Source: Flavobacterium profundi (lineage in GTDB: Bacteria > Bacteroidota > Bacteroidia > Flavobacteriales > Flavobacteriaceae). Taken from it: a DNA stretch of 64,000 nt. The first letter of the stretch is position 1. Each line of letters begins with the position of its first letter. A program made the position numbers and the translations under genes. Under the pieces are notes generated by a model. That model was not told where the DNA came from. It searched no databases and saw nothing but the letters and a program-made list of their open reading frames with translations. The stretch covers positions 185,178 to 249,177 of the forward strand of contig NZ_VDCZ01000005.1 in assembly GCF_006491645.1 (NCBI RefSeq), given 5' to 3'. This document shows, one piece after another, positions 37,910 through 54,128 of this stretch.

Positions 37910-37926
37910 GGGATTCATTTTAAAAA

Positions 37927-37977
37927 CAAAATTGAAAAAAATCCTACCCAAAAAAAATAAGGCAATTGCCTTATTTT
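37927..37977 (-). promoter_or_regulatory. Regulon operator site A and promoter (OmpA-family gene)
   Basis: A perfect 24-bp palindrome at 37954-37977, with ATAAGGCAATTGCCTTAT as its inner 18 bp. Its centre (37965.5) is 31.5 bp upstream of the first base of a -7-like box CAATTTTG (minus strand, 37934 to 37927). The same geometry occurs at sites B, C and D. The -33 region is only a T-tract, as expected for an activator-dependent promoter. Confidence 0.8.
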
Positions 37978-37991
37978 ATATCATTCATTTA

Positions 37992-38633
37992 TTAAATCAG
38001 GTTGTTGCGCTTGGCTTTTTGAACAGCTTCTAATTTTGAGTGTACTTGTAATTTTGAATAGATATTCTCAATGTGTTTTCGCACAGTAGAAGGAGATAAA
38101 AATAAATTTTCAGCTATTACTGTATAACTTAAGCCTTGTGCTAACTGTTCTAAAACATCAATTTCTCTAACTGTTAGATTAATCTCTTCTTTAGTTGCAT
38201 CATCAAAACTAATAGGATTTCGCAGTAATTTTAAAGTCTTTAAAGCTATAGAAGGATTCATTGCTGCACCTCCATTTAAGGTTTCTACTATCCCATTAAA
38301 CAAAACATGTGGATTGACATCTTTCAACAAATAACCATCCGCTCCAGCTTTAATAGCATTAAAAATATTTTCATCATTATCAAAAACAGTAAGCATAATA
38401 ATTTTAATTTGAGGGTATTTTTGTTTGACCGCTAAAGTTGCTTCTATACCATTCATAATAGGCATTTCAATATCCATTAAAATAGCTTCTAAATGGTTGT
38501 TTTTTTCTAATTTTTCTAATAATTCGACACCGTTTAAGGCTGAAAACTTAATTTGAATTTCTTCAAAAAAAGATAATTTTTCCTTAATTGATGTAATTAG
38601 AAAACTATTATCATCTACAATGGCTATTCTCAT
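37992..38633 (-). CDS. NarL/LuxR-type response regulator
   Basis: A 213-aa two-component regulator. The receiver domain has Asp7/Asp8, the phospho-acceptor Asp54 (LMDIEMP), Thr82 and Lys104 (GYLLKDV). The C-terminal LuxR-type helix-turn-helix spans residues ~148-213 (LTVREIDVLEQLAQGLSYTVIAE, SPSTVRKHIENIYSKL). It is the last gene of the operon that starts at 43268, two bases after the small membrane protein gene. The two TPR histidine kinases nearby are the likely phospho-donors, and the palindromes in this island are likely binding sites; both are inferences from context. Confidence 0.95.
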   Translation of the reverse strand: MRIAIVDDNSFLITSIKEKLSFFEEIQIKFSALNGVELLEKLEKNNHLEAILMDIEMPIMNGIEATLAVKQKYPQIKIIMLTVFDNDENIFNAIKAGADGYLLKDVNPHVLFNGIVETLNGGAAMNPSIALKTLKLLRNPISFDDATKEEINLTVREIDVLEQLAQGLSYTVIAENLFLSPSTVRKHIENIYSKLQVHSKLEAVQKAKRNNLI

Positions 38634-38635
38634 GC

Positions 38636-38893
38636 TTATTCTTTTAATTTTGAAATTTCATTTAGTAGAGTGGCTTGTTGTTTAAGAATGTCTAATTTAA
38701 AATGAATACTTTCATAAACATTGTTATCAGATTTACTTTTAATTACTTTACTTTTATTTGTTTGAAAGGCAATGTCTTTTTCTAAATCAAACACTAAAAT
38801 GAGATGTGTTTGCTTTTCTTTTTTTATTGTATTTATATGCCAGACAATAATCGAAAGACTTATTAAAAGTAGAAAAATTAAAATACTATTCAT
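38636..38893 (-). CDS. Small single-pass membrane protein
   Basis: An 85-aa protein with an N-terminal transmembrane segment (ILIFLLLISLSIIVWHI) and a Lys/Glu-rich tail that may form a coiled coil (HFKLDILKQQATLLNEISKLKE). No family recognised. It lies between the DUF6498 and response-regulator genes with gaps of 20 and 2 bp, so it belongs to the same operon and may help signalling at the membrane (inference). Confidence 0.75.
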   Translation of the reverse strand: MNSILIFLLLISLSIIVWHINTIKKEKQTHLILVFDLEKDIAFQTNKSKVIKSKSDNNVYESIHFKLDILKQQATLLNEISKLKE

Positions 38894-38913
38894 AATCTTT
38901 TGATTTATTGTTC

Positions 38914-39651
38914 TTATTCTTCAAAAAAAACCTTTAAAGTGGCTTCAATCTTAGGCAATTCTTCTGGTTTCTTTTGATCCATTATTCGTATGGCTAATGC
39001 TTTGATTTTTTCTGCATCTTTAGCAATTAATGAAAAATAATAATCTAATAGTGTACGCATGAGTATTAATAAAATAGCGGCAACTATACCTACAGCGTTC
39101 ATAAAAAACAAAAAGAAGAAAGGAATTATAGCTAAAAATTGTTGCAAAAAAATACGCAAATAGGGTTTTACCATATAAGCTCCAAGATGCTGCTGGTTAT
39201 ACTTTTTAACTTTTAAAAATGAAAAGTAAAAGGAAGCTACATGAGTTGCTAGTATAGACAAAGTAACCAACTTAAAGCCTTCTAAGTGTAATATTTCAAC
39301 GAAATTAGAAAAACTTAATGAGGTGGAGAAACGTTCGTCATTAATAGCAAAAGCAGTGTATAAAAAAATACTTTGTATGGCTACAAAAATGCCATAATGA
39401 ATCATAAAAAAAGGAATCAAAAGAAAATTACCTACTTTGGATTCTCTTTTCATAGGTTTATTATTCTTGATAATGTAAAATAGTTTCACTACGTGAACTA
39501 ATCCAATTATAATAGTTTCAAAAACATAAGCAAAAACAATAGCCATTGGGTCTGCTTTTCCAACAAGTAGCAATGCGATTAAAAACAAAGCATTAGCTAC
39601 TATGGAAGGATTACTGTTATGTAACTTATTGTTTAAAAAAGAGTAGTTCAT
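38914..39651 (-). CDS. DUF6498-like polytopic membrane protein
   Basis: A 245-aa protein with about six hydrophobic segments, including IVANALFLIALLLVG, IVFAYVFETIIIGLVHVV, FLLIPFFMIHYGIFVAIQSIF and LAIIPFFFLFFMNAVGIVAAIL. The PFFMIHYGIFVAIQ block is typical of DUF6498. No catalytic motif seen; function unknown. It is third in the operon, eight bases after the CHAT-protein gene. Confidence 0.82.
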   Translation of the reverse strand: MNYSFLNNKLHNSNPSIVANALFLIALLLVGKADPMAIVFAYVFETIIIGLVHVVKLFYIIKNNKPMKRESKVGNFLLIPFFMIHYGIFVAIQSIFLYTAFAINDERFSTSLSFSNFVEILHLEGFKLVTLSILATHVASFYFSFLKVKKYNQQHLGAYMVKPYLRIFLQQFLAIIPFFFLFFMNAVGIVAAILLILMRTLLDYYFSLIAKDAEKIKALAIRIMDQKKPEELPKIEATLKVFFEE

Positions 39652-39659
39652 ATCGACTT

Positions 39660-42512
39660 TTATCTTCCGTTATATAAAAATGGTGCCCAAAATTTAGGCG
39701 CTTTTACCGAATCACCAAAATCTCCATTAATAAATGCTCGTTTAATATCGTTTAAAATCACATTGGCTTTTGCATTATTTTGAATCACATTTTTAAACAA
39801 TAATTGCATTGTTAAAGCTGTACTAGCATCATCTACTGACCAAAGCGACAACAAAGTACTATTGGATCCTGCCACTAAAAAAGAAGTATTTAATCCATTG
39901 ATACCTTCACCACCATATAATTTCCCTACACCTGTACTACAAGCACTTAAAATAGTTAAATCGGCATTAAGATTTAATTTTGCTATTTCTGGAGCTAATA
40001 AAAACGTATCCTCTTTACCGTCTCCTCCATTGGGTTGCGAAAACATTACACCACTAAATTCTGGAATTACATCTCCTGTAAAACCATGAGTGGATATAAT
40101 TAGATTTTTATATTGTTTTAATTCGCCTGAAAGATTGGCTTTTTTGAAATTACTCTCGGTCATATTTTGTCCTGTAATTACTTTAGCATCATTGGAAAGG
40201 GTTCCAATAAACTCCACTTCTTTTAAGGTTCCTTCTAAATAACCTGCTCCACCAAAACCAACGGCTTCTAATTCAGGCTTTAAGTTATAATTTCCTTGTT
40301 CGATTTTTTTAGAAACAGCATCAGAAATTTTATAGTAATCCTCAATAGTTCGAACCGTTGCTTTTACATTTCCTGAAGGTTGATATTGTGCCCCACCAAA
40401 AGCTATGACCGATTTTCTGTCACTACTATAATTCCTATTTGACACCATTTTCCAGACGCTTACATTTGGAATATATCGCACATTATTAGTACTAACAAAA
40501 TATTGATTTTTGGGATTTATAAAAGCTTCAAAAGGCAAATAATTCAATTCTGAAGCAGCACTGATGATTACGTTTTTATATTGACTTGTTAAATCTTGAA
40601 CGGGAAGCAATACTAAGTTGTACCAAAAATGAAGAAAATCAGCTTGTGGTTTTTGATATTCTGGTTTGTTTGAATTTTCCAAAATATCTCTTGTCCATTG
40701 TACTAAGGTGACTAAATCTTCTTTTTTAAAGTTGGATTCTTTATTAGCATATCGCACTAATTTCCCGTCTTCATAATCTACATTAAAATCTTGCATGTAA
40801 GGATTCAACGTAGAAGGTACTTTTTTAATTCTATCTGTATAGGCTTTTTTGATGGCAATCAAGTCGTCAATTGGGTAATTGTATCTGATTTCTGCTTTAT
40901 TTTTTGAAATAGCCGTAATGATAATTTCTCCTGGTTTCCCAATACTATACGTCAACAATAATTCATCGTTTTGTAGCATATTTTGCGCTTCTTTTACATT
41001 GGCAACAGCCGAATTATTTTGCAATAAATCTTTTAAATAACTACTCCGTGTTCGCTCTTGTAAATCAAACAACTTTTCGGTTTGATTAGTTTCTTTATAG
41101 CACATTATCAAACCTGTGTAAGCACCAGCAACCTCGTTCATATACTCTAATTTCTGTTTGGCATTTAATCCTTTTTTGATAGTTTCTGCTAATGCGATAC
41201 TTTTTTCGAATTCGATACTGGCATTTTTGTAGTCTTTTCGTAAGTATAATACAAAAGCCATATTGTTGTAGAGATTTTGAGCGTCAATATATTTTTTATC
41301 TTTCAAATAATCTTGTACTAATGCTTCATTAATTTTTGTGGCATCAGCATACAAACCTTGCTTTACTTTCACCATAGCATAATTGGCACTCACTTCATTT
41401 AGAAGATTTTTATCGTTAACCGTTTTTGCTAAAGTGTAGGCTTTGGTAATGTATTCAGTCCCTTTTGCCATTTCGGATTGTGCTCCATCCATAAAATAAT
41501 AGGAACCAATAGAATTATACGCTTTGGCTAAAAAATAGTGATTATCAATATTTTTAGCGGTTTGTTCTAATTGGAAAGCGGTTTGCAATTTCTCGTCATT
41601 TTTATCACCAAGCATTTTCAAAACATAAATTTTATGCAATTGCATGTCTGCCAATGCTAAAGAAGCAAATGGTAATTTTGCATATTCCGCTAAGCCTTCA
41701 TTTATAGTAACTAAAGCTCCTCTGCTATTGTAAGAATTGTTTTTTATAACCGACAAAAAGTATAAAGCATAACTTCTTTTCGCTAATAAAGAAGAATCAT
41801 TTTTACTAATCTCTAAAAAATACTCAAATTGTTTGATACTTTCGTTAGCATTCCCACCATAATAATACGTTACTGCTTTTAGCAAAGGCAACATTTTTTG
41901 AAACAAAGGATTTGCCTTTTTCATACTTGAAAACTGAGCAAACAGCATATCTAAATTGTTGCATTTTGTGCCTGATGTAAGAATACTATTTACACAAGTA
42001 TCGAGGTTTAAAGCCTTATTGGTATTAATTGTTTTCGTTTGATAATAAGTAAGCCACTGGTTTTTTAAAACGGATGCGTCTTTTTTAGTAAAAAATTCAA
42101 TCTTTTCAATATCTTCGAGAATATCTTTTGCTTCTTGAAAAGTGCTTAATTGCATGGCCCATTCTAAATTCTTCAAGGCATTTGGAGTATTTCCTTTAAG
42201 AAAATCAATATAAGCTTGTGTATAATAAGGATATTGAAGTAAAGGTTGAATATTCATGGCTTGTATAGTACTGGCTTGTGCTTGGTTTAAATCACCTTTG
42301 AGAATTTGGTAATACGAATTGAGATAAAAGCCAGCAAACTCATCTGAAAAATAGGTTATCAATCCTTCACTTCCGGTTTTCATTTTCAGTAAATCATTCG
42401 TTTTATAGCCTTCTAAATACTGATTATAATACTCATCAAAGGTTTTTTGAGACCAAACTTTTGGTATATTTAAAAAAAGTACAATCAAAACAATTTTAAT
42501 CCAACACTTCAT
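39660..42512 (-). CDS. Exported TPR-CHAT protein (caspase-like peptidase fold)
   Basis: A 950-aa protein. A signal peptide (residues 1-21, ending PKVWSQ) indicates export to the periplasm or surface. Residues ~25-500 are helical tetratricopeptide-like repeats. The C-terminal ~300 residues are a CHAT domain of the caspase clan, with catalytic His809 in IISTHGFTG and Cys858 in LSACSTGVGKLYGGEG; WSVDDASTALTM and a FWAPFLYNGR end are also typical. The substrate is unknown. It sits in the operon with the response regulator, which suggests a link between proteolysis and envelope signalling (inference). Confidence 0.93.
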   Translation of the reverse strand: MKCWIKIVLIVLFLNIPKVWSQKTFDEYYNQYLEGYKTNDLLKMKTGSEGLITYFSDEFAGFYLNSYYQILKGDLNQAQASTIQAMNIQPLLQYPYYTQAYIDFLKGNTPNALKNLEWAMQLSTFQEAKDILEDIEKIEFFTKKDASVLKNQWLTYYQTKTINTNKALNLDTCVNSILTSGTKCNNLDMLFAQFSSMKKANPLFQKMLPLLKAVTYYYGGNANESIKQFEYFLEISKNDSSLLAKRSYALYFLSVIKNNSYNSRGALVTINEGLAEYAKLPFASLALADMQLHKIYVLKMLGDKNDEKLQTAFQLEQTAKNIDNHYFLAKAYNSIGSYYFMDGAQSEMAKGTEYITKAYTLAKTVNDKNLLNEVSANYAMVKVKQGLYADATKINEALVQDYLKDKKYIDAQNLYNNMAFVLYLRKDYKNASIEFEKSIALAETIKKGLNAKQKLEYMNEVAGAYTGLIMCYKETNQTEKLFDLQERTRSSYLKDLLQNNSAVANVKEAQNMLQNDELLLTYSIGKPGEIIITAISKNKAEIRYNYPIDDLIAIKKAYTDRIKKVPSTLNPYMQDFNVDYEDGKLVRYANKESNFKKEDLVTLVQWTRDILENSNKPEYQKPQADFLHFWYNLVLLPVQDLTSQYKNVIISAASELNYLPFEAFINPKNQYFVSTNNVRYIPNVSVWKMVSNRNYSSDRKSVIAFGGAQYQPSGNVKATVRTIEDYYKISDAVSKKIEQGNYNLKPELEAVGFGGAGYLEGTLKEVEFIGTLSNDAKVITGQNMTESNFKKANLSGELKQYKNLIISTHGFTGDVIPEFSGVMFSQPNGGDGKEDTFLLAPEIAKLNLNADLTILSACSTGVGKLYGGEGINGLNTSFLVAGSNSTLLSLWSVDDASTALTMQLLFKNVIQNNAKANVILNDIKRAFINGDFGDSVKAPKFWAPFLYNGR

Positions 42513-42524
42513 AATAATATATTT

Positions 42525-43268
42525 TTAAAGACTAATTTTTAAAGTGCCGGCATCATAAAAACCTTTTTGTATAACTGTTAAGTTTTTATCAACAATGAAA
42601 CCTAAACCTTCTTGATTGTTTTTATGCCAAGCTCCTATGTAAATATTTTTGTTAGCAAAAAAGTAAACACCAAATTCTTTTCTTAAACCTTGAATACATT
42701 GTCCATAGAAAGAATCTCCTGCATCCCATATTTGAATAATAGGGAAAGCTTTACTACCATAAGCAAAATAACCTAGAGCATAAGAAGTTTTATACTTTTC
42801 AATTGTAAAACCTTCAAAATTAGGTTTGTTTTTATCTGTATAAAAATCGAAACTATGATTTACAGTATAACCATTTGGGTCTTCAAACCCTTTCTTGAAT
42901 TGTTTTGTCCAAGCAATTTTACCATTTGCGATTTGAAATGCAGGACCATCTAATAGATTATTTCTATATGTATATAATGTAACTTCTCCAGTGCTACTAT
43001 TCATAATAATAGTAGTTCCATCCATGACATGATCTTTATTGTAATTAGAATAAGTTTTTATCCCAGCTGCATCTATATTCAATTGTGGACCAACTGGCAA
43101 ATCATCCATTCTAAAACCTATGCTTACATTTCCTTTATCATCAGTAGTTTTCACAAAAGAAATTAATCCCTTGTCAACGTCTTTTTTCTTGACTTGTTTA
43201 CCGTAATCAATTTGTGAAAAACTTAAAGAAACTAGCAGTAAACTAATAAAAAGTAGGGCTTTTTTCAT
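42525..43268 (-). CDS. Exported MORN-like repeat protein, first gene of the regulator operon
   Basis: A 247-aa protein with a signal peptide (ending SLSFSQ). The sequence has loosely repeated beta-hairpin units such as LYTYRNNLLDGPAFQ and NIYIGAWHKNNQEGLGFIV, like MORN repeats. No enzymatic motif. Operator site B and a -7 box lie just upstream, and the four downstream genes follow with gaps of 12, 8, 20 and 2 bp, so it leads a five-gene operon ending with the response regulator. Confidence 0.82.
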   Translation of the reverse strand: MKKALLFISLLLVSLSFSQIDYGKQVKKKDVDKGLISFVKTTDDKGNVSIGFRMDDLPVGPQLNIDAAGIKTYSNYNKDHVMDGTTIIMNSSTGEVTLYTYRNNLLDGPAFQIANGKIAWTKQFKKGFEDPNGYTVNHSFDFYTDKNKPNFEGFTIEKYKTSYALGYFAYGSKAFPIIQIWDAGDSFYGQCIQGLRKEFGVYFFANKNIYIGAWHKNNQEGLGFIVDKNLTVIQKGFYDAGTLKISL

Positions 43269-43296
43269 GACTTATAATTTTAAAAATTTATACTCG

Positions 43297-43344
43297 TAAA
43301 ATTACTTTGAGTCCATCAATCTTGAAATAAGGCAATTGCCCTAT
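43297..43344 (-). promoter_or_regulatory. Regulon operator site B and promoter (regulator operon)
   Basis: An 18-bp palindrome with one mismatch (ATAAGGCAATTGCCCTAT, 43327-43344), centre 43335.5. The -7-like box TAATTTTA reads from 43304 to 43297 on the minus strand, 31.5 bp from the centre. It lies 28 bp upstream of the ATG of the operon that encodes the response regulator, which implies autoregulation. Confidence 0.78.
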
Positions 43345-43375
43345 ATTTCATTTTTCAAGAAAGTACATATTGCTT

Positions 43376-44170
43376 CTAATAATAATCAATAACCCTAGTG
43401 ATTTCTTGATTTTTAATCCAATTATTATGTGAATCTACTTTAAAATTATTCAGTACCTCTTTTATTTGACTATCTGTTACATTACCCTCTTCAAATGGAA
43501 AGCCAAATATGGGATTTCCAAAATAATCCGAATAAATATAACTTACTGATTCGGTATCTTCATATTTATAAGTCAATTTTATTTGAACAAAATCAGTAAA
43601 GAAGTTATAGTCAAAATGCGTTCTTTCTGAAATTATATTGTTATTAAACACAATGTTTTCAGTAAGTTTTAAATCATTACTATATTTATTTTCTTGAAGT
43701 GTACTTTTATCTTCCAAACGACTTTGTTTCGTCCAATATCCATTTTTATTATATTCATTTACAACAGTTACCATTCCATATTCTTTATTATTGGTAACTA
43801 ATTGAACAACGTTTTCGTCCTCATTTAGGGTCACTTGAAAGTCACGCATCTTTTTTGCGCTTGTTGTATAAGAAATTAATTTTCCCCTCTTGTCATAATT
43901 GAATTTTTGTGATACAAAACCAAATCCATTTTTTACTTGGATAAGATTTCCTTTATCATCAAATTCGTGAATGATTTTCTCATTGTCTTCATTTTCTGGA
44001 AGCGTCAATTCGTAAAACGATTTTACGTTTCCTTGTAATCCAAAATGTTCTAATTTGTATTTGACAGGTACATCATGGTACATTTTATAGAAATGAATAC
44101 TGTCTTTTGATTGAGCAGTTGCAAAGCAAAAAAACAAACTGGAAAACATTATAAATACTATTTTTTTCAT
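43376..44170 (-). CDS. Exported RHS/YD-like repeat protein
   Basis: A 264-aa protein starting at the ATG at 44170, which places the signal peptide (MKKIVFIMFSSLFFCFATAQ) at the N-terminus; ATG at 44191 would add seven residues. The body has short Tyr/Asp repeats of RHS character (HEFDDKGNLIQVKNGFG, FNYDKRGKLISY, NEYNKNGYWTKQS). No catalytic site. It follows the site C gene after a 77-bp gap with no clear terminator, so it may be cotranscribed. Confidence 0.8.
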   Translation of the reverse strand: MKKIVFIMFSSLFFCFATAQSKDSIHFYKMYHDVPVKYKLEHFGLQGNVKSFYELTLPENEDNEKIIHEFDDKGNLIQVKNGFGFVSQKFNYDKRGKLISYTTSAKKMRDFQVTLNEDENVVQLVTNNKEYGMVTVVNEYNKNGYWTKQSRLEDKSTLQENKYSNDLKLTENIVFNNNIISERTHFDYNFFTDFVQIKLTYKYEDTESVSYIYSDYFGNPIFGFPFEEGNVTDSQIKEVLNNFKVDSHNNWIKNQEITRVIDYY

Positions 44171-44247
44171 TTTTAAAGAGTTTAATTGCATTAAATAAAA
44201 AGTTGAATGTTTTGTTCTACATGTAGCATAAGAGAATTGCTGTATTT

Positions 44248-46212
44248 TTATTTACAATCGCTAGTTAATTGTATTTTAGTTTCTTTACCATCATTAACTA
44301 CTAATGAGTATTTTGTACCATCAGAACTAATTCTGTACACTTTTACTGTAGCAATTTGTGTGGTGTATCCATTAACGTTTTGAGTTATTCCCAATAGTTT
44401 TCTGCGTACAAAAACCCCATTAAAACCATATGAAACACTTATTAATTCTATTTGATATTGGTCTTTTGTTACTCCTATGGCTAGTAAATCTGCACCATTA
44501 TATGTGCAAAATTTACCAATAACATAAGTAGTGCCTCTAATTCCGTTTTTATTTAATAATTCACTGGAAGAAACATTTACATAATCGAAATTAGAATAAT
44601 TTAATTCGTAATAGCTTCCAAAAGTTTTAAATTGGCTTAAAAATGATTCCACTTCCAATTTTGCTTTTTGTTGAAGGGCTTGAGATTCTTGATTATTTTG
44701 TTCGCGTTCGGCAAATGTTTTCTCGGGTAACAAAGGAATAATTTCATTTGTTTTGATATTTACTATAAAAGAATTAACATCAATAACTTTATCGTTATGA
44801 GAAAAATAAAATGGCGCATCACTATTGTCTTTAGAGCTTACATAAACTTCATTACATTCTGGATAATATTGTAAATCGTAATATACAAAACCATCTTTTC
44901 GATCTTTTACCAATAGTTGTACTTTTTCTGCTATCGTTTTATCAGTAGTTTTATCTACTATTGTGAGTTCACGACCATTTATAATTAGGTGGTATTTACC
45001 TTGAAAAGTTCCCTTTTCTTTTACATCTTGAGTTTCGTTGGTTTTTAAATCAACAATTCGGGTATCAAACATATTCAATAGAACAATTTTATTACCATAA
45101 TGCGACAATCTTTGAGTTTGGCCATTCCCAAGAAAACCTGTATTTATACTAATTTCTTCACCTGTTTCAATAACATATGCGTGAATACCGACGAATAAGT
45201 ACTCTTTATTTTCTGAGATATCGATTTGATACCTTCCATATTTCGATTTAAATAGTTTTTCAAAACTATCTTTTTCGTAATCATACTTATATACTATATC
45301 TCTTTCATTTATTACTAAAATTGAATTTCCTTTATATTTTCCAATGTAAAAATAATCTTCAAGAATTTTTACAGGTTTATTTGGTATATTCAATTCTACA
45401 TTAGCTTCAACATTTTTTGCAAAGGAATTATCGTTCTCATTGTAAGAGTCCAATGTTAGGCTTTTAGTAGTATTGTTATAAGTAAAGCAATGTTTTTTTT
45501 TGCCTGAACTATCCTTTATTTCGGTATCAAGATTACGATAGAAGTCGTGTAATTTGTTACGATTTTGGAATTCCAAAACATTTTTATACGTTTTAGCAAG
45601 TTTATGGTGCAAACCGGTATTTTTAAAATCATTTAATTGTACTAATAGCCTTTCTTTTAAATTGTTTTTTTGTTCAGAGTCCAAATAATAAGCTATGACA
45701 TGATGGGCACCAATTCCTGTTTTGCCTGTTGTTAATCTGAGTTCATTTCCTTTTGATTCAATGTTGGAAATATGTTGAATAACCTGATCATTAATAGAAA
45801 AAAACAATTCATGATCAATTTTATAAAACTGTAATCTATTAAATCCATGAGAATTCACCAAAGAAGTGCTTTGCCAAACGTCATTATTTTCAAACGTGGT
45901 GACGTTATATCCTCTAATTTTAATAAAATCTTTGTATTGCTTTTGTTTTATAGATCCGTTTGAAATATACATTGCATAAAAACTTTTTGGATTTGCTTTA
46001 TAACCGAAAAGTAAGCCTGCGTTTTCGTTACTAGCATCATACGAAAAAGGGACACGCAATTCTGCTTCTACAAAAAAATCTTTACTCCAATCGGGTTCAA
46101 ATGGAATATTAAATTTTATTTTGTTGTTTACAATCTCTTCTTTAATAAAATAGTCCTGCGCAAGTATTTTATTTGAAATAATTAAGCTGCATAAAATTAA
46201 AAAAAGTCTCAT
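44248..46212 (-). CDS. Large exported protein of unknown function under operator site C
   Basis: A 654-aa protein with a signal peptide (ending NKILAQ). Residues ~20-190 look like a concanavalin-type jelly roll (ENAGLLFGYKANPKSFYAMYISNG, DVWQSTSLV), resembling the N-terminal region of the OmpA-family protein encoded at 35837. The middle (~240-480) is beta-rich and WD-like, with lines such as DSFEKLFKSKYGRYQIDISE. The last ~130 residues seem compact. No known enzyme motif. It is preceded by site C and a -7 box only 24 bp from the ATG. Confidence 0.82.
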   Translation of the reverse strand: MRLFLILCSLIISNKILAQDYFIKEEIVNNKIKFNIPFEPDWSKDFFVEAELRVPFSYDASNENAGLLFGYKANPKSFYAMYISNGSIKQKQYKDFIKIRGYNVTTFENNDVWQSTSLVNSHGFNRLQFYKIDHELFFSINDQVIQHISNIESKGNELRLTTGKTGIGAHHVIAYYLDSEQKNNLKERLLVQLNDFKNTGLHHKLAKTYKNVLEFQNRNKLHDFYRNLDTEIKDSSGKKKHCFTYNNTTKSLTLDSYNENDNSFAKNVEANVELNIPNKPVKILEDYFYIGKYKGNSILVINERDIVYKYDYEKDSFEKLFKSKYGRYQIDISENKEYLFVGIHAYVIETGEEISINTGFLGNGQTQRLSHYGNKIVLLNMFDTRIVDLKTNETQDVKEKGTFQGKYHLIINGRELTIVDKTTDKTIAEKVQLLVKDRKDGFVYYDLQYYPECNEVYVSSKDNSDAPFYFSHNDKVIDVNSFIVNIKTNEIIPLLPEKTFAEREQNNQESQALQQKAKLEVESFLSQFKTFGSYYELNYSNFDYVNVSSSELLNKNGIRGTTYVIGKFCTYNGADLLAIGVTKDQYQIELISVSYGFNGVFVRRKLLGITQNVNGYTTQIATVKVYRISSDGTKYSLVVNDGKETKIQLTSDCK

Positions 46213-46236
46213 TTGAAAAAATATTTAATTGAACAA

Positions 46237-46284
46237 CAAAGTTGATCAATTAAATAGTTTCTTTAAATAAGGCAATTGACGTAT
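46237..46284 (-). promoter_or_regulatory. Regulon operator site C and promoter
   Basis: ATAAGGCAATTGACGTAT (46267-46284) has one intact half and one partly degenerate half; centre 46275.5. CAACTTTG on the minus strand (46244 to 46237) is exactly 31.5 bp from the centre, as at the other sites. It lies between the stop of kinase 1 and the ATG at 46212. Confidence 0.75.
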
Positions 46285-46287
46285 TTT

Positions 46288-48177
46288 TTACAAATCAAAC
46301 TTTAAACTCACTTTTGTTCCTTTTTCTAATGGTTCAATTCCAAAAATAGCATCGATTTCAGCAGCTCTCTTTTGCATACTTGACAATCCATTTCCAGCTT
46401 CGGTAGTGGTTGCATCGAATCCAATTCCATTATCAATAATTGCAATCTCTATACCTTTTCCAATCACTTCAAAATGGACCGCAATTTTAGTGGCTTGAGC
46501 ATGTTTAATAGCATTATTAACGGCTTCTTGAATGATTCGATAAACATCAATTCCTTGTAAAGAATTTAGAGAACTATTTTCTGAATTTTCAGGATAATTG
46601 AATTCAAAATTTATTCCTAATAATGAGGTTTTTGCGGCTTCAATGAAGTTGGTAGTTCTAACTTTCAAATCTTCAAAGGAGATGGATTCTTTATTCATAG
46701 CCCAAATTGTATCTCTCAAATCGGTAATTGTAGAACGAGTAAAAGTACCAATAGCATCAAATTTTGAATATAATTTATCTTTGGTAAACTCAAAATATTT
46801 CAAATTATCTAAAGAAGAAATGATAAAAGTTAATTGGGAACCAATATTATCATGTAAATCTTTTGAAATAGCTAAGCGTTGCTCTTGCAAATTATTTTGA
46901 TTTTCTATACTAATTAAAGCTTGTTTGAGTTCATTTTCTTTAATAATTTGTTTGTTTTTCAAGAGTTGTTGCTTGTAGATTAAGTAAGTAAATAGTCCTA
47001 AAACAAGTATTCCCAATGACAACAATAAAATGGTTGTATTTCTTTTTTTCTCAATAATCTCCTTTTCTAGTAAGAGTCTTTCTTTTTTATCTGTTTCATA
47101 GATAATCTCATATTCAGCAGTGGCTTTTTCTTTTTTTTCACTAGTCATTTTTTTATAGTATTTTAATGACTCTTTCTTTGCTTCTAGTGCTTTTTGAGGT
47201 TGGTTACTTTTTTCATAAATATTAGACAATAAAGTATATGAAGTGTAAAGGTTCACAGCAAAATCTTTCTCTTCAAAAAGGGCTATCCCTTTTTTTGCAT
47301 AAGTTTCTGCTGTAGTGTAATCGTTTTTTAGCATTGCCCAATTACTTAAATTAGCATAAGAATCAGCAATATGCGTTTTATTACCTAATTTAATATCAAT
47401 GGCTAAACATTTTTCGAAGTAAAATTTAGCACTATCTAATTGGTTACTGTACAAATAACAATTGGCTTTATTACTCAAAAAAGTAACTTTATAAAATTCT
47501 GAATGGATAGAATCTGACAATTGTATTCCTTCTTTATCCAATGCCAAAGCACTTTCAAAATCATTACTCATCCCATAAAGATTAGCTAGAGTTTGAGATG
47601 CTTTTAAGTATACGTAATTGGTTTTTTTATTTTCTAACAATTTAGTGGCTTTTAACAAATTCTGTTTAGCCTTTTCTAAATCACCTTTATTCAAATAAAT
47701 TTCACCCATTTCAGCATAAGAATTGGCAATTTGCTCAATATCCTTTAGTTGTTCATATTGTTTGATTGCTTCTAAATGAGCTGCAATTGCTAAATCATAT
47801 TCATTGGCTCCTTTTAATAAAAACCCTTTTTGATATAAGGCATACGCTTGAATAGGATTGTTTTTTGGTACTAAGTTTATAGCTTCGTCAATTTCTTTTT
47901 TAGCTAATTCATTATAGGTTTTTCTTCTATAATGTATTGATTTAAAAATTTTAGCTATCGCCTTTACTTCTGGATTTTTACTGTTTTCATATTTTAATAA
48001 TTGTTCCGTAAAATAATCTAAAGAGTCTCTTCTAACTTTTAGATTTTCTTTCGTTTTTTCGTAAATGATATAAGCTGTAGCATCTATTCTTTTATCTATT
48101 TTATTTGCTGTAACATCATCCTTATGACAGGCTGATAAAATAAAAAAAGATAAAATATAACAAAAAATCCTAGACAT
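46288..48177 (-). CDS. TPR sensor histidine kinase 1 with lipoprotein signal
   Basis: A 629-aa kinase. The N-terminus (FFILSACHKDD) has a lipobox with Cys17. TPR repeats fill residues ~60-345 (AYALYQKGFLLKGANEYDLAI, IANSYAEMGEIYLNKGDLEKA). A transmembrane segment lies near 375-400. The HisKA_3-type phospho-acceptor is His442 in ISKDLHDNIGSQL, and the ATPase part has EAVNNAIKHAQA, DNGIGFD and GNGLSSMQKRA. The sensor would face the periplasm and the kinase the cytoplasm. It is nine bases from kinase 2 and shares DNA-identical blocks with it. The expected partner is the response regulator at 37992. Confidence 0.93.
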   Translation of the reverse strand: MSRIFCYILSFFILSACHKDDVTANKIDKRIDATAYIIYEKTKENLKVRRDSLDYFTEQLLKYENSKNPEVKAIAKIFKSIHYRRKTYNELAKKEIDEAINLVPKNNPIQAYALYQKGFLLKGANEYDLAIAAHLEAIKQYEQLKDIEQIANSYAEMGEIYLNKGDLEKAKQNLLKATKLLENKKTNYVYLKASQTLANLYGMSNDFESALALDKEGIQLSDSIHSEFYKVTFLSNKANCYLYSNQLDSAKFYFEKCLAIDIKLGNKTHIADSYANLSNWAMLKNDYTTAETYAKKGIALFEEKDFAVNLYTSYTLLSNIYEKSNQPQKALEAKKESLKYYKKMTSEKKEKATAEYEIIYETDKKERLLLEKEIIEKKRNTTILLLSLGILVLGLFTYLIYKQQLLKNKQIIKENELKQALISIENQNNLQEQRLAISKDLHDNIGSQLTFIISSLDNLKYFEFTKDKLYSKFDAIGTFTRSTITDLRDTIWAMNKESISFEDLKVRTTNFIEAAKTSLLGINFEFNYPENSENSSLNSLQGIDVYRIIQEAVNNAIKHAQATKIAVHFEVIGKGIEIAIIDNGIGFDATTTEAGNGLSSMQKRAAEIDAIFGIEPLEKGTKVSLKFDL

Positions 48178-48185
48178 ATAAAATA

Positions 48186-50288
48186 TTAATTTGCAGGATT
48201 AATAGCATTTATTTTTAAATCAAACCAAATTTTAGTTCCATGTTCCAAGGACTCAATAAACAATTCAGAATCAATTTCAATGGCTCTTTTTTTCATAGAG
48301 TTCAAGCCGTTTCCAGCTTCTGTAGTAGTTTTATCAAAACCAATTCCGTTGTCTACGATTGAGATTACTATACATTCTTTTATAACTTCAAAATTGACTA
48401 CAATTTTAGTAGCTTGAGCATGTTTAATAGCATTATTAACGGCTTCTTGAATGATTCGATAAACATCAATTCCTTGTAAAGAATTTAATAAAATAGTATC
48501 GTTTTTTTCTGGATAATTGAATTCAAAAGTAATGCCTAATAATGAAGTTTTTGCTGCTTCAATAAAATTAGTAGTTCTTATTTTCAAATCTTCAAAAGTA
48601 ATAGCTTCTTTATTCATTGCCCAAATTGTATCTCTCAAATCGGTAATTGTAGAACGAGTAAAAGTACCAATAGCATCAAATTTTGAATATAATTTATCTT
48701 TGGTAAACTCAAAATATTTCAAATTATCTAAAGAGGAAATAATAAAAGTCAATTTAGAACCAATATTATCATGCAAATCTTTTGAAATGGTTAAACGTTG
48801 CTCTTGTAAATTATTTTGATTTTCAATCTTTATTAAAGCTTGTTTTAATTCATTTTCTTTAATGATTTGTGTGTTTTTTAATCGTTGCTGTTTATAAACC
48901 AAAAAGCCTATTAAGCCTAGTAGAAAAGCTAATGCTAAAGCAGAATATAAAAAAGTTGTTCTTTTTTTAATTTTAGCTTCTTTGGCTAATAAATCTACTT
49001 TTGCTTCTGCTAATTGTTTTTCTTTTTTTTCTGTTTCATACTTAACTTCGAAATCTGAAATTTTTTCTTGGAGAGAATTCTTTTTTAACTCTTTTTCAAT
49101 ATTATAATATTGCTCTTTATATTCATAAGCTTTTTTAAATTCTTTTTTCTCAAAATATAACGTTGCTAAATTTTTATATAAAGATGCTATATCTGATGGA
49201 TTACTTGCTTCTACAATTAAAGGCAACGCTTTATTAAAATAATATTCTGACTCTTTTAAATCTTTAATTGTTAAATAATTAGTTCCTAAATTCAAATATG
49301 TAATTCTAAGTGTTTGAATATCATTCGTTGCAATTGCTTCTTCAATAACCGATTTATAAATTGTAATAGCTTGTAATGGCTTATTTCTTACTGTTGCTAA
49401 TTGAGCCATACCCGTTTTTGAAAACAATATTACCTTTCCATAGTTTACTTCTTTTGCCTTTGCTATTGCTAGTTCAAAATATTTTTCAGACTTTGAAAAG
49501 TATGATGAATCTTTCTCTTTTTCACCAATTTCTTTATACATTCCAGCTACATTATACAAGCTATTAGCAATATCAGTTTCACTATTCCCATTCTCTTTAA
49601 TTTTCAATGACTTTAAATAATACTGAAGCGCTTTTTTATATTCTTTCATGTCTTCATAAATTAGTCCAATATTATTAAACGATCTCCCTAAAGCTGTAGA
49701 ATCATTGAGCGATTCGGCAATAATTATTCCTTTTTTATGTTCATCTATAGCTTTTTCTGCATCTCCTAAATAAGACATTGCTAAAGCTTTATTATTTAAA
49801 AAACGGAGTTCATCTACTTTATTTTTTTCTTTTACTGCTAATGAATATGCTTTATCAAAATTTAACAAAGCATTCTTAAAGTCTCCTTTTTGAAAATTCA
49901 ACACTCCGAAATCTCCATAATATTTGTTATAGAGAAAATAATCATACTTTGGTTCAATTTCTTTCCAAATCTCATTATATAATGATTCTGATTTAACATA
50001 ATCTCCTTTGACTAAAAAAAACTGGGCATATTTTAATTTAGTATGAATATAGGATACAAATAAGTTTTTACTATTTTGCGTTAATTTCAAATTCTTTTTA
50101 ATGTAGAACTCAGCCGAATCTTTATTTTTTTCAAAATACCCATCAATTAACTGCATTAAAAATTTTGATTTTTCTTCGTCATTTTTTGCACTTGAGTAGG
50201 CTTTTTTTAAATCTTCAATTTCATACTTTTCTTTTTGAGAGAAAGAGTAAATACTAAAAAAAATCAATAAAGAGTATAATAATTTCAT
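48186..50288 (-). CDS. TPR sensor histidine kinase 2
   Basis: A 700-aa kinase with an ordinary signal peptide (MKLLYSLLIFFSIYSFSQ). TPR repeats occupy ~50-400 (NNIGLIYEDMKEYKKALQYYLKSL, YLNLGTNYLTIKDLKESEYYF). A coiled coil leads to a transmembrane segment near 445-468. The phospho-acceptor is His506 in ISKDLHDNIGSKL; the ATPase motifs EAVNNAIKHAQA, DNGIGFD and GNGLNSMKKRA follow. The sensor half diverges from kinase 1 while the kinase half is near-identical. It is the first gene of a probable two-kinase operon with no operator palindrome upstream. Confidence 0.93.
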   Translation of the reverse strand: MKLLYSLLIFFSIYSFSQKEKYEIEDLKKAYSSAKNDEEKSKFLMQLIDGYFEKNKDSAEFYIKKNLKLTQNSKNLFVSYIHTKLKYAQFFLVKGDYVKSESLYNEIWKEIEPKYDYFLYNKYYGDFGVLNFQKGDFKNALLNFDKAYSLAVKEKNKVDELRFLNNKALAMSYLGDAEKAIDEHKKGIIIAESLNDSTALGRSFNNIGLIYEDMKEYKKALQYYLKSLKIKENGNSETDIANSLYNVAGMYKEIGEKEKDSSYFSKSEKYFELAIAKAKEVNYGKVILFSKTGMAQLATVRNKPLQAITIYKSVIEEAIATNDIQTLRITYLNLGTNYLTIKDLKESEYYFNKALPLIVEASNPSDIASLYKNLATLYFEKKEFKKAYEYKEQYYNIEKELKKNSLQEKISDFEVKYETEKKEKQLAEAKVDLLAKEAKIKKRTTFLYSALALAFLLGLIGFLVYKQQRLKNTQIIKENELKQALIKIENQNNLQEQRLTISKDLHDNIGSKLTFIISSLDNLKYFEFTKDKLYSKFDAIGTFTRSTITDLRDTIWAMNKEAITFEDLKIRTTNFIEAAKTSLLGITFEFNYPEKNDTILLNSLQGIDVYRIIQEAVNNAIKHAQATKIVVNFEVIKECIVISIVDNGIGFDKTTTEAGNGLNSMKKRAIEIDSELFIESLEHGTKIWFDLKINAINPAN

Positions 50289-50421
50289 AACCTTTTTTTA
50301 AATCTATTTCTTACTTTTTAAAAAAACGAACTTAAAAATAGTAAAAACTTTATTATCAACTACATATAAAGTAAATAAATTAGTACAAAAGCGTATTTTC
50401 AAGATGATTCTTTTTTACAAA

Positions 50422-50447
50422 AAAATAGGGAGTTGACTCCCTATTTT
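50422..50447 (-). terminator. Terminator after the site D gene
   Basis: The 11-bp stem AAAATAGGGAG / CTCCCTATTTT with a TTGA loop lies 18 bp beyond the stop at 50466 and separates this gene from the kinase operon. The T-tract is present on the minus strand. Confidence 0.82.
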
Positions 50448-50465
50448 AATAACAAACAAAACAAA

Positions 50466-51536
50466 TTATTTAAACTCACTCGAAAAGGCATCTAAATGGT
50501 ATTTCAAAAATTCTTTTCCAGCTTTAATTACACCTTCATTATACTTTTTTGTATCTACAGGGATAATTGTGGTCTTAGCTGATGATTTATTTTCAGCTTC
50601 ATAATATTTTCCAAAATAAGTATCCGTTCCAACAAAATCTACTGCACCTTTTGCATAACTTTGGATTACTTTTTCATCAATTACATTTTCAATGGTAAAA
50701 TCTTTCTTTAATAATCCGGTATAAACGGATTCTGCACTTCCTCCTATGGGATACTTTCCACAAGTAAAATTTATAGTATTGGCACCTGTAATGTATTCTA
50801 CTTGTTTTTTAAATATGCCTTTATCGTCACTTTTTGCTGCTATTGTTTCATTAGCCACTAAACTCAATTGTGTTTTAATCTTAATATTTGCTGCATTTCC
50901 TTGAAAAGCATATACATCTTTCATAAAAAAAACATATAAATCTACTGCTACAACAACAACATCATCTAAGTCTTTAGACAAACTTTGTTGCGTTGTATTC
51001 ATGGCTCCAAACTTGGCAGCTAAAGCTTTTCCTACTTTAGACCTATCCATGTAATAAAATTCAAAACCTTCAGGTACAGCTGTAATGATTCCTGGTTTAT
51101 CGGATGCTATTACAAAAGGACCTTTTGCTTTTGTAAATCCCTCATAAGTATTCGTTTTTCCTGCTACATCAGCACTTATTATTTCAAATCCTTTACTTTT
51201 TATTTGGCTCACAAAATCCTGATACAAATTATTTGCTATTAGCTGAAAATCGCTTTCACTCAAGCTTCCTAAACCTACCATTAATTCGGCAGTAGCATCT
51301 CCCTGAACGCCTTTGTCGCGAAATAATGAACCCCCTTTGTTCGTTTTTTGTTTTACGTTAAACAATTGATAGTTAATCGAAAAATTAGAAATATAAATTT
51401 TCTTTGGTTTGGACTTTAGTTTTCCAAGTCCGAAAGTGTCTTCTTTTGGTTTAAATTCTCCCAATTCTTGAGCAAATACGTTTTGGATAAATAAGAGAAC
51501 TACAAAAAGTAATAATGAGGTCAATTTTGTTTTCAT
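50466..51536 (-). CDS. Exported protein of unknown function under operator site D
   Basis: A 356-aa protein with a signal peptide (ending QNVFAQ). I do not recognise the family. The mature part has alternating strands and helices (KKIYISNFSINYQLFNVKQ, DFQLIANNLYQDFVSQIKSKGFEI, DVVVVAVDLYVFFMKD), suggesting a compact alpha/beta domain, and no Cys-His catalytic set is evident. Operator site D and a -7 box lie just upstream and a terminator just downstream, so it is a one-gene member of the proposed regulon. Confidence 0.78.
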   Translation of the reverse strand: MKTKLTSLLLFVVLLFIQNVFAQELGEFKPKEDTFGLGKLKSKPKKIYISNFSINYQLFNVKQKTNKGGSLFRDKGVQGDATAELMVGLGSLSESDFQLIANNLYQDFVSQIKSKGFEIISADVAGKTNTYEGFTKAKGPFVIASDKPGIITAVPEGFEFYYMDRSKVGKALAAKFGAMNTTQQSLSKDLDDVVVVAVDLYVFFMKDVYAFQGNAANIKIKTQLSLVANETIAAKSDDKGIFKKQVEYITGANTINFTCGKYPIGGSAESVYTGLLKKDFTIENVIDEKVIQSYAKGAVDFVGTDTYFGKYYEAENKSSAKTTIIPVDTKKYNEGVIKAGKEFLKYHLDAFSSEFK

Positions 51537-51564
51537 AAGGTATCTTTTAAGATTAGTAACGATA

Positions 51565-51612
51565 CAAAATTGTTAAAAACAAAAGTGGTAATCAATACGA
51601 CAATTGCCTTAT
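51565..51612 (-). promoter_or_regulatory. Regulon operator site D and promoter
   Basis: ATACGACAATTGCCTTAT on the plus strand (51595-51612), centre 51603.5; on the minus strand it reads ATAAGGCAATTGTCGTAT, close to site C. CAATTTTG on the minus strand (51572 to 51565) is 31.5 bp from the centre and identical to the box at site A. Confidence 0.75.
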
Positions 51613-52653: not shown

Positions 52654-53388
52654 TTATCGATTATAATAAAATTGTTCCGTAATTACCTCACTATCATAGG
52701 TTACAGTTGAAGATACTGGAAAATTATTGTTATTATAAACAAAAACTACCGACATATCATTAATATCTTCCGAATCATCTTCTTCAATTATATTATGCAT
52801 AATTCCTTCTCCTTCAAATCCACAAAAAGTAATTTTATTAACTCCAGTAACATTCAATAACGGAGTATTTTTAGCATCATAACTGTACGTAGTAGTTTTT
52901 CCAGAAGTTAGTTCAATTTGGCTAATTTCCCCATTTAAAAAACTAATCGTACCTGTATCATTCAAAGTGGTTTGAGAAACAGAAGTACCTATGTAATAGT
53001 TAACTGAAATGGATCCGTTTGCATTGTAGCTATACGTTTCTTTGGTTCCCCAATCAGGATTCACATTATCAACATCAATATAAGTTATAACCCTCCCATT
53101 TGAATCGTATGTATATGTTTCAGTTGAAATTAATTCAGAAGCTTCATAATGCTTTATTTCTGTTATTAAATCATTTTGATACGTAAATAAAGAATACCCA
53201 TCATCATCCGTTACTTTTACCAGTTTTGTACCTGAATACTCATATTGTACTGTCCAAGTACTATTATCGTCATATGTTTCAACAATCTTAGTAACTAAAA
53301 TTGGTGTAGAATCATTTGAAGAATCATCACTAGAGCAAGAAATAAGTACTAGTGTAAAAGCACTTAATAGGGCAAAAAATTTTTTCAT
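52654..53388 (-). CDS. RHS/YD-repeat-like lipoprotein A
   Basis: A 244-aa lipoprotein (VLISC, Cys18) followed by an Asp/Ser-rich linker. The body has short beta-hairpin repeats with the pattern Tyr-Asp-x-Asn-Gly (YTYDSNGRVITYID, YSYNANGSISVNYY), as in RHS/YD proteins but without a toxin end. It is paralogous to the genes at 53409 and 56070. The signal-peptide DNA is nearly identical to that of its upstream neighbour, which indicates a recent tandem duplication. Function unknown. Confidence 0.82.
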   Translation of the reverse strand: MKKFFALLSAFTLVLISCSSDDSSNDSTPILVTKIVETYDDNSTWTVQYEYSGTKLVKVTDDDGYSLFTYQNDLITEIKHYEASELISTETYTYDSNGRVITYIDVDNVNPDWGTKETYSYNANGSISVNYYIGTSVSQTTLNDTGTISFLNGEISQIELTSGKTTTYSYDAKNTPLLNVTGVNKITFCGFEGEGIMHNIIEEDDSEDINDMSVVFVYNNNNFPVSSTVTYDSEVITEQFYYNR

Positions 53389-53408
53389 TTTTTTAAAATT
53401 TAATTTTA

Positions 53409-54128
53409 TTAATTGTTATAGAAATATTCTGTTATAATTATTTCTCCATCACCTGTAGTTTCAGTTCTTTTTATTGGGAAATTATCTGAATTATAAATAT
53501 ATGTATAAGTTGAACTTCTAGAATCTGCTGTTGAATTATTATATAACTTGTTAGTTGCATTATTATAATCATAATCAAAATAACTTCTAAATAATTCATA
53601 AGGAGAATATACATTCATAAACGGACTGTTTTTAGTATCAAATTGATAAGTAGTAATAATAGATGATTCTTCTATAGCTACAACATTATTATTTAAAAAA
53701 GTATAAATAAATGTATCAGCAAATCCATTACTATCATAATTATCTTCAGTTATAGTACCATTCGAGTTGTATGTATAATCAAAATGTAAATTATCATGGT
53801 ATTCAATAGAGCTTAATTTATTTTGTGCATTATAAACGTAATTCACATTTCCTGTTATTAAATTTGATCCATCATAATATTTTTCAATTCCAGAAATTAA
53901 TTTACCATTCGAATCATATACAAAAGTTTCACTTTCTCCATCTGAATCCTCCACTTTTATCAATTTATTTCCATTGTAATAGAAGTTTTCTGTATAAGTT
54001 GATCCATCTTCATATGTCTCAATAATCTTAGTTACTAAAATAGTTGAAGATTCATTTGAAGAATCATCACTTGAGCAAGAAGTAAGTACTACTGTAAAAG
54101 CACTTAGTAGGGCAAAAAGTTTTTTCAT
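53409..54128 (-). CDS. RHS/YD-repeat-like lipoprotein B
   Basis: A 239-aa lipoprotein. I place the start at the ATG at 54128 (MKKLFALLSAFTVVLTSC, Cys18); the upstream ATG at 54179 would add 17 residues before the signal. The mature part starts SSDDSSNESS and carries YD-type repeats (FVYDSNGKLISGIEKYYDGSN, YTYNSNGTITEDNY). It is 20 bp upstream of paralogue A and probably cotranscribed with it. Confidence 0.82.
   Translation of the reverse strand: MKKLFALLSAFTVVLTSCSSDDSSNESSTILVTKIIETYEDGSTYTENFYYNGNKLIKVEDSDGESETFVYDSNGKLISGIEKYYDGSNLITGNVNYVYNAQNKLSSIEYHDNLHFDYTYNSNGTITEDNYDSNGFADTFIYTFLNNNVVAIEESSIITTYQFDTKNSPFMNVYSPYELFRSYFDYDYNNATNKLYNNSTADSRSSTYTYIYNSDNFPIKRTETTGDGEIIITEYFYNN

What the first reader, a model, noticed from the sequence alone, without database searches (positions are those of the whole stretch)
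37927..51612. Four-site regulon: palindrome ATAAGGCAATTGCCTTAT at a fixed distance from a -7 box
Sites at 37957-37974, 43327-43344, 46267-46284 and 51595-51612 share the core CAATTG with GGCAATTGCC intact or partly degenerate. All four lie in gaps upstream of minus-strand genes. In each case the centre is exactly 31.5 bp from the first base of a -7-like box on the gene strand (CAATTTTG, TAATTTTA, CAACTTTG, CAATTTTG). If the box is centred at -7, the operator centre is at about -41.5, the class II activator position, and the -33 sequences are poor (TTTT, TTTC, TTTA, TTGA). The island encodes one LuxR-type response regulator and two TPR kinases. I infer a self-contained envelope-signalling regulon. 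I know of no description of it.
Basis: partly seen in the sequence, partly recalled or inferred. Interest (0 to 1): 0.93.

Follow-up and report, generated by a model that had tools for sequence, protein, structure and literature searches.

The report
Self-wired envelope-signalling regulon in flavobacteria
In flavobacteria, a sensor-regulator gene cluster carries the same 18-letter DNA palindrome at a fixed distance before its gene groups, and the cluster's own regulator likely binds it to switch on itself, its sensors and a set of predicted cell-surface proteins, which gives a simple place to test how such regulators choose their DNA targets.

Summary
The four palindromes, their gaps and the exact 22-nt spacer to a -7 box are there, and in the 4.0-Mb genome the promoter pattern fits exactly at these four places only. 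Loci encoding relatives of the island's LuxR-type response regulator (RR) carry the same operator: 210 sites in 66 of 80 loci (permuted-matrix controls 2, 0, 1), 182 with an NANNTTT box exactly 22 nt downstream. In a family draw of 299 genomes 43 have the promoter; 40 of these encode the RR, and 99 of 119 sites lie within 15 kb of an RR. RRs whose recognition helix reads xG instead of PS mostly sit beside a second dialect, ATACG-N8-CGTAT, at the same spacing. First genes after the operators, RR excluded, start with a hydrophobic segment in 166 of 169 cases. I read it as an autoregulated two-component regulon activated from about -43.5, not -41.5. RR binding and activation are inferred, the signal is unknown, and my searches found no description in print.

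The parts
37957..37974 (-). Operator 1, ATAAGGCAATTGCCTTAT, before the OmpA/PD40 gene; it is also the core of a terminator-like hairpin behind the RR gene
37927..37934 (-). -7 box CAATTTTG, 22 nt after operator 1
43327..43344 (-). Operator 2, ATAGGGCAATTGCCTTAT on the gene strand, before the 247-aa/CHAT/DUF6498/85-aa/RR genes
43297..43304 (-). -7 box TAATTTTA, 22 nt after operator 2
46267..46284 (-). Operator 3, ATACGTCAATTGCCTTAT, before the 654-aa secreted protein gene
46237..46244 (-). -7 box CAACTTTG, 22 nt after operator 3
51595..51612 (-). Operator 4, ATAAGGCAATTGTCGTAT, before the 356-aa protein and the two kinase genes
51565..51572 (-). -7 box CAATTTTG, 22 nt after operator 4
37992..38633 (-). 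NarL/FixJ-type response regulator (receiver domain, Asp54, GerE/LuxR HTH with LSPSTVRKH helix); proposed reader of the operators
38636..38893 (-). 85-aa protein with one predicted membrane helix, directly before the RR; candidate third component
38914..39651 (-). DUF6498 membrane protein
39660..42512 (-). Predicted secreted TPR-CHAT protein, candidate His809/Cys858 pair (catalytic role recalled, not tested)
42525..43268 (-). 247-aa predicted secreted protein, first gene after operator 2; no Pfam or NCBIfam hit
43376..44191 (-). 271-aa ORF, predicted secreted, second gene after operator 3; no Pfam or NCBIfam hit
44248..46212 (-). 654-aa predicted secreted protein, first gene after operator 3; no Pfam or NCBIfam hit
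46288..48177 (-). Sensor kinase 1: N-terminal hydrophobic segment, TPRs, one later TM helix, HisKA_3, HATPase_c
48186..50288 (-). Sensor kinase 2, same layout
50466..51536 (-). 356-aa predicted exported protein, first gene after operator 4; no Pfam hit
35837..37918 (-). PD40/OmpA outer-membrane-type protein, first gene after operator 1 (ATG at 37918 or 37909; the TTG at 37951 lies upstream of the -7 box)

Best explanation
The four palindromes are likely operators of the island's own LuxR-type response regulator, which is predicted to activate transcription from about -43.5, just upstream of a weak -7 box, and so to switch on itself, its two sensor kinases and a set of predicted envelope proteins. 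Proposed course: a signal in the periplasm is sensed by the TPR domains of the kinases (inferred from domain order), the RR is phosphorylated at Asp54 (inferred), dimers bind ATAnGgCA-N2-TGcCnTAT (inferred from conservation and covariation), and contact RNA polymerase at the fused TTG/-7 promoter in the class II manner (inferred from the invariant 22-nt spacer). Shown: the sites, the spacing, the linkage to the RR, and the association of operator type with the recognition helix. Because kinases and RR lie in gene groups headed by operators, the loop would be positive feedback.
For: Sites and spacing in the window and their genome-wide uniqueness. 210 sites in 66 of 80 RR-homolog loci, controls 2, 0, 1; of these 162 have a strict and 20 a relaxed box at exactly 22 nt, 9 at 21 or 23, 19 none. 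44 of 50 genomes with such an RR (50 of the 80 loci given) carry the promoter pattern, no control hit in any; the six without it all have xGTI-type RRs. Family draw: promoter in 43 of 299 genomes, control hits in 2; RR at E<=1e-80 in 73; 40 genomes have both. 99 of 119 sites within 15 kb of the RR, 39 of 41 genomes with at least one (the 41st genome, G318, has an RR at 63% identity). Helix PSTV: 57 loci, 166 canonical and 12 other sites; xGTI: 13 loci, 0 canonical, 22 other. Kinase relative in 55 of 57 full-length loci. The RR itself is the script-assigned first gene after an operator in 42 loci.
Against: No binding, transcript or mutant data exist here. The helix/operator association is not shown to be independent of descent: on a receiver-domain tree only 2 pairs on supported branches could be compared, too few for a test. 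13 of 57 distinct RRs with G in the helix still sit with canonical operators. 20 of 119 sites are far from the RR, and 33 of 73 family genomes with the RR lack the canonical promoter. The paralogous RR of this genome begins its helix with the same PSTV, yet its 16-kb neighbourhood holds no canonical operator; it holds one ATACG-N8-CGTAT palindrome with TAATTTTG at 23 nt, which would go against a simple helix code if that RR reads it. 19 of 210 sites lack the box at 21-23 nt. An operator over the -33 position could also repress.
Confidence: 0.85

Rival explanations
1. The RR binds the palindromes but represses: bound at the -33 position it would block RNA polymerase until a signal releases it.
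For: The operator overlaps the -33 position and a TTG is fused to its 3' half.
Against: A repressor needs no exact distance, yet 182 of 210 sites have the box at exactly 22 nt. The -7 box departs from TAnnTTTG: first base C in 45%, T in 37%, as expected of an activator-dependent promoter.
Confidence: 0.08
2. Another DNA-binding protein encoded elsewhere reads the palindromes, and the RR is only a passenger or a target.
For: 20 of 119 sites in the family draw are more than 15 kb from the RR, and 2 of 43 operator-bearing genomes show no RR on the fetched stretch (G312, G451).
Against: The operator goes with the RR across the family and its type goes with the RR's recognition helix.
Confidence: 0.05
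3. The palindromes are transcription terminators or RNA hairpins, not operators.
For: Site 1 is listed as terminator-like: 10-pair stem, AATT loop, T tail (6 such sites in 17.6 kb against 5.4 in shuffles, so no excess).
Against: The other three sites are not listed as terminator-like, have no T run, and the fixed distance to a downstream -7 box is not a terminator property. Site 1 may do both.
Confidence: 0.01

Closest known systems
FimS/FimR of Porphyromonas gingivalis
   Same: Bacteroidota two-component system: TPR-rich periplasmic sensor domain between two TM helices (PMC11053733, passages read) and an activator RR that binds a target promoter directly (PMC1974823, passages read). Among NCBIfam models, FimS is the best match covering the TPR part of kinase 2.
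   Different: FimS model score 39.8 and 76.9 bits against a cut-off of 600. PMC1974823 uses the words 'palindrom' and 'consensus' 0 times in its main text. FimR controls fimbriae; here the targets are mostly in the RR's own cluster.
LiaFSR / VraSR of Firmicutes (recalled)
   Same: NarL-type RR, HisKA_3 kinase, membrane partner and a narrow, self-inclusive envelope-stress regulon (recalled). VraR is the closest solved structure to the RR (5hev, E 9e-30); the LiaS model matches kinase 1 at 47.5 bits.
   Different: LiaS score far below its cut-off of 450. TPR sensors, Bacteroidota -7 promoters, other operator and other targets. The 85-aa protein is not shown to relate to LiaF.
NarL/FixJ family response regulators (NarL)
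   Same: Receiver plus GerE/LuxR HTH; near full-length NarL match, 1a04, E 1.7e-28.
   Different: NCBIfam NarL score 127 bits against cut-off 250; operator unlike NarL heptamers (recalled).
PorX/PorY-type regulation in Bacteroidota
   Same: Two-component control of envelope functions; the OmpA/PD40 gene resembles PorE (203 bits).
   Different: PorX is not a LuxR-type RR (recalled; only the receiver part matches, 44 bits); the PorE score is below its cut-off of 600.

Membership tests
NarL/FixJ response regulators | Receiver domain followed by GerE/LuxR HTH | tested here: met
   Pfam Response_reg 77.5 and GerE 64.3 bits, both above cut-off
NarL/FixJ response regulators | Conserved phospho-acceptor Asp | tested here: met
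   Asp54 in MDIEMP
FimS/FimR | Kinase passes the curated FimS model | tested here: not met
   39.8 and 76.9 bits against cut-off 600
FimS/FimR | TPR sensor between two membrane segments, histidine kinase at the C-terminus | tested here: met
   Pfam TPR_12, HisKA_3, HATPase_c; N-terminal hydrophobic segment and a TM at 381 / 444
LiaFSR | Kinase passes the curated LiaS model | tested here: not met
   47.5 and 40.2 bits against cut-off 450
LiaFSR | Membrane inhibitor LiaF | tested here: inconclusive
   The 85-aa membrane protein has no Pfam or NCBIfam match; its role is unknown, and no separate search for LiaF was made
Class II activator promoter | Operator centred near -40, overlapping -35/-33, at fixed distance from the core promoter | tested here: met
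   182 of 210 sites with the box at exactly 22 nt; about -43.5 if the box is at -12 to -5 (PMC9723704); start sites not mapped
Class II activator promoter | Transcription depends on the activator | not testable with these tools
   needs RR deletion and transcript measurement
Flavobacterial sigma-A promoter | TAnnTTTG -7 box | tested here: inconclusive
   AnnTTT is kept, but the first base is C in 45% and T in 37%
Anti-phage defence system | Proteins match defence models | tested here: not met
   Of 8 proteins scanned, 2 matched (OmpA/MotB-like; HTH/receiver-like), none of the other 6, the CHAT protein included

The most novel reading that the evidence does not exclude
A natural specificity code for LuxR-type response regulators: one regulator lineage spread over the Flavobacteriaceae reads two operator dialects, ATAnGGCA-N2-TGCCnTAT and ATACG-N8-CGTAT, chosen by a few residues at the start of the recognition helix (PS versus xG), while the outer arms and the 22-nt distance to the -7 box stay fixed and the envelope genes behind the operators are exchanged from species to species.
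Probability: 0.42. Interest if true: 0.75.

Novelty: new variant of a known kind. Interest (0 to 1): 0.64.

Why it matters
My searches turned up no described operator for a LuxR-type response regulator of flavobacteria (open-licence papers only). This one comes with 210 aligned sites, a fixed promoter geometry, a second dialect that goes with the recognition helix, and a defined set of target genes. That makes three open questions directly testable: how Bacteroidota activators contact RNA polymerase at TAnnTTTG-type promoters, which residues set the DNA target in this regulator family, and what TPR-type kinases sense. It also names a regulon for predicted envelope proteins that have no family or only a DUF.

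Tried and rejected
Chance: rejected by the window, genome and family controls. Terminator reading: fits site 1 only. Defence island: PADLOC gives only generic matches. Alternative operator in site-less loci as a near-perfect 18-mer palindrome 22 nt before a box: one match in 14 loci; the gapped-dyad scan then showed AATACG-N8-CGTATT, and the pattern was followed. The positive control of that dyad scan did not recover the canonical operator among its top six, so its ranking is weak; the second dialect rests. A tree-based test of helix against operator was inconclusive. A regular expression for kinases missed many (found in 37 of 81 loci) and was replaced by tblastn. A small membrane protein stood within 450 bp before the RR in only 17 of 81 loci, window included; in others small genes have their own operator. 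Literature: PMC9723704 predicts sigma-factor motifs, and 'luxr' and 'palindrom' occur 0 times in its main text (passages only, supplements not read); motif strings gave unrelated papers among the 20 of 470 listed (titles and abstract starts only). No structure prediction was run.
Full report
What was checked. The four palindromes are at 37957-37974, 43327-43344, 46267-46284 and 51595-51612 with 0, 1, 2 and 2 mismatches to ATAAGGCAATTGCCTTAT; 0.06 matches at up to 3 mismatches are expected in the window. Each lies in a gap before minus-strand genes and is followed on that strand by exactly 22 nt and an 8-base -7-like box. The box motif has a density of 0.0034 per position per strand. In the whole genome (4,013,996 bases, 44 contigs) the four are the only places at up to 2 mismatches; at up to 3 there are 12 places against 7 for the reversed pattern. 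A promoter pattern with relaxed operator, 22-nt spacer and box, searched at up to 2 mismatches, gave 16 matches (reversed control 6): four exact, all in the island, one with 1 mismatch (C11:12478), eleven with 2.

The island. Minus-strand order: operator 4, 356-aa exported protein, kinase 2, kinase 1; operator 3, 654-aa and 271-aa secreted proteins; operator 2, 247-aa secreted protein, TPR-CHAT protein, DUF6498 membrane protein, 85-aa single-helix protein, RR; operator 1, PD40/OmpA protein. That the kinases share operator 4's transcript across a 177-bp gap, and that the RR shares operator 2's, are inferences from gene order. If so, both sensors and the RR are under their own operator. Kinases: N-terminal hydrophobic segment, TPRs, one later TM, HisKA_3, HATPase_c. 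RR: receiver with Asp54 and a GerE HTH.

Conservation. With the window's 18-mer at up to 3 mismatches, 132 matches fell in 1.47 Mb of loci L030-L113, against 0 for the reversed pattern (this set includes the four loci, one of them from the own genome). A symmetric matrix gave 210 sites scoring at least 14 in L034-L113, against 2, 0 and 1 for column-permuted matrices; 66 of 80 loci have at least one. Of the 210, 162 have a strict yAnnTTTr box and 20 a relaxed NANNTTT box exactly 22 nt downstream, 9 have a relaxed box at 21 or 23, and 19 have none of these. On the other side of the palindrome no offset holds more than 4 strict boxes. The profile of 208 of these sites (two lack flanks) reads ATAcGgCAwwTGcCgTAT followed by T (77%) and G (56%), then the box with C 45% or T 37% at its first base; the script-assigned ATG lies at a median 34 nt from the box's first base (window sites included). 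A Flavobacterium psychrophilum TSS study puts the sigma-A box at -12 to -5 (PMC9723704, passages read), so the operator centre is near -43.5.

Genome-level test. The promoter pattern (no mismatch) was present in 44 of 50 genomes holding such an RR, with no control hit in any; the six without it are those of L049, L058, L060, L069, L083 and L089, all of which have xGTI helices. These 50 of the 80 were picked by me, mostly those with long loci. In an even draw of 299 genomes of the family, 43 have the promoter and 2 have a control hit; 73 have an RR at E<=1e-80, and 40 have both. Of the three exceptions, G318 has a PSTV-type RR at 63% identity near its operators (no closer to the window's RR than this genome's own paralog is), G312's contig is only 6.9 kb, and G451's site has no RR on the stretch fetched. 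Of 119 sites in 41 genomes with a located RR (G318 included), 99 lie within 15 kb of it; 39 of 41 genomes have at least one near site and 27 have only near sites. In the phylum draw the pattern is in 13 of 395 genomes, no control hits, ten of them outside the family, so related wiring may exist more widely. Against these, the bare 18-mer at up to 2 mismatches is not specific: 26 matches against 13 control matches in 60 relatives, own genome included, with clusters only in G000 and G025. In the window's own genus the CHAT protein is in 4 of 199 genomes, so the payload is patchy.

Two dialects. Where the helix reads LSPSTVRKH, 57 loci hold 166 canonical sites (box not required) and 12 others of the form ATA-N-G-N8-C-N-TAT with the box at 22 nt; where it reads LSxGTIRKH, 13 loci hold 0 canonical sites and 22 others; the remaining 10 loci (PATV, PGTV, SGTV, TGTV, PSTI) hold 10 canonical and 5 others; 159 of all 176 canonical sites have the box. 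In the family draw, 39 RRs were read from operator-bearing genomes: PSTV 30, xGTV 7, SGTI 1, not parsed 1. From the 33 genomes with RR but without the canonical promoter, 35 RRs: xGT[VI] 33, PSTI 2, PSTV 0; 31 of these 35 loci carry a general-form site with a relaxed box at 22 nt, the four without being two xG and both PSTI loci. Exact ATACG-N8-CGTAT occurs 46 times in these loci (620 kb), 36 times with a strict box at 22 nt; re-lettered and re-spaced controls occur 1, 0, 0, 0 and 5 times (the last control has fewer fixed bases). In the 13 xGTI loci it occurs 24 times, 14 with the box at 22 nt, controls 0, 0, 0, 0, 2. Some family-draw genomes are the same species as, so the second set is only partly independent. 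Over 142 distinct RRs (of 155; identical rows, unparsed helices and site-less loci under 6 kb dropped): S or A in the helix with the canonical operator 84, without 1; G with 13, without 44. On a tree of the receiver domains only 2 independent pairs could be compared on supported branches, so descent is not excluded as the cause. In the own genome a paralogous RR (66% identity, helix VSPSTVRRH) has no canonical site in 16 kb but one ATACG-N8-CGTAT palindrome with TAATTTTG at 23 nt; whether it reads that site is unknown.

Output of the regulon. Of 169 first genes after operators (211 assigned by script, 42 RRs excluded; 3 of 214 sites had none), 166 have an N-terminal hydrophobic segment, against 312 of 673 plus-strand ORFs of at least 200 aa in the same loci, a rough background. 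Recurrent first genes by BLAST cluster: a DUF6252-like lipoprotein (45 loci; representative just below the Pfam cut-off), the RR itself (42), small proteins of about 80-96 aa (three clusters, 25, 7 and 5 loci, not shown to be homologous with each other), a PQQ propeller protein (21), the TPR kinase (17), MORN proteins (7 loci), OmpA/PD40 proteins (5 including the window). A relative of the window's kinases is within 55 of 57 full-length loci. So sensor and RR recur while the payload changes.

Comparison. FimS/FimR is the nearest described Bacteroidota system by layout, LiaFSR/VraSR the nearest by logic (recalled; VraR is the best solved structure). Curated models of FimS, LiaS, NarL and UhpB (the best-scoring model for both kinases) are matched only below their cut-offs, so I file it as none of them; it works like an autoregulated NarL-type two-component system. 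Searches for a description (listings only, except the passages named above) gave none; the library holds open-licence papers only.

Noticed in passing
Own genome outside the window: L171-L176 (C1:76864, C1:243149, C3:48599, C3:51831, C5:57537, C12:127778): A palindrome ATACGT[A/G]TAAATACGTAT (one variant ATACGTATTTATACGTAT), which fits the outer arms of the second dialect, at six dispersed places with TAnnTTTG exactly 22 nt downstream (control 3 at up to 1 mismatch). In L255 and L256 a further copy stands about 33 bp upstream. The pattern is in 2 of 60 relatives searched, four times in G016, no control hits. Behind the site at C3:48599 no ORF of 100 aa or more is read on its strand in the 4.6 kb fetched downstream, so a small RNA or peptide is possible.
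   Followed up: partly
window 37954-37977: Operator 1 is also the core of a terminator-like hairpin behind the RR gene; one sequence may serve as terminator and operator.
   Followed up: no
L255: 11458-14402 (own genome C5, about 145 kb from the island): A paralogous set of RR (66% identity), TPR histidine kinase (602 aa) and a 117-aa protein with a hydrophobic N-terminus and no Pfam match, the same kinds of part as in the island; no canonical operator in 16 kb.
   Followed up: partly
window 46288-50288: The two kinases are nearly identical from about residue 398 of kinase 1 on but diverged in the TPR part (50% identity over 527 aligned columns in all), as after a duplication or gene conversion.
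   Followed up: partly
G313, G325, G524, G533, G544: Single palindromes with -7 boxes at the set distance on both strands, as if one operator served divergent promoters; five cases in 121 listed matches, about 1.4 expected from a rough base-frequency estimate made by hand.
   Followed up: no
window 58529-58538: GGCAATTGCC also occurs inside the 878-aa ORF at 56827-59463 without the flanking operator bases.
   Followed up: no
window 52654-54179 and 56070-56807: Three similar-looking predicted lipoproteins beside the island; the first two match the Pfam RHS_repeat model above its cut-off, the third has no Pfam match.
   Followed up: no
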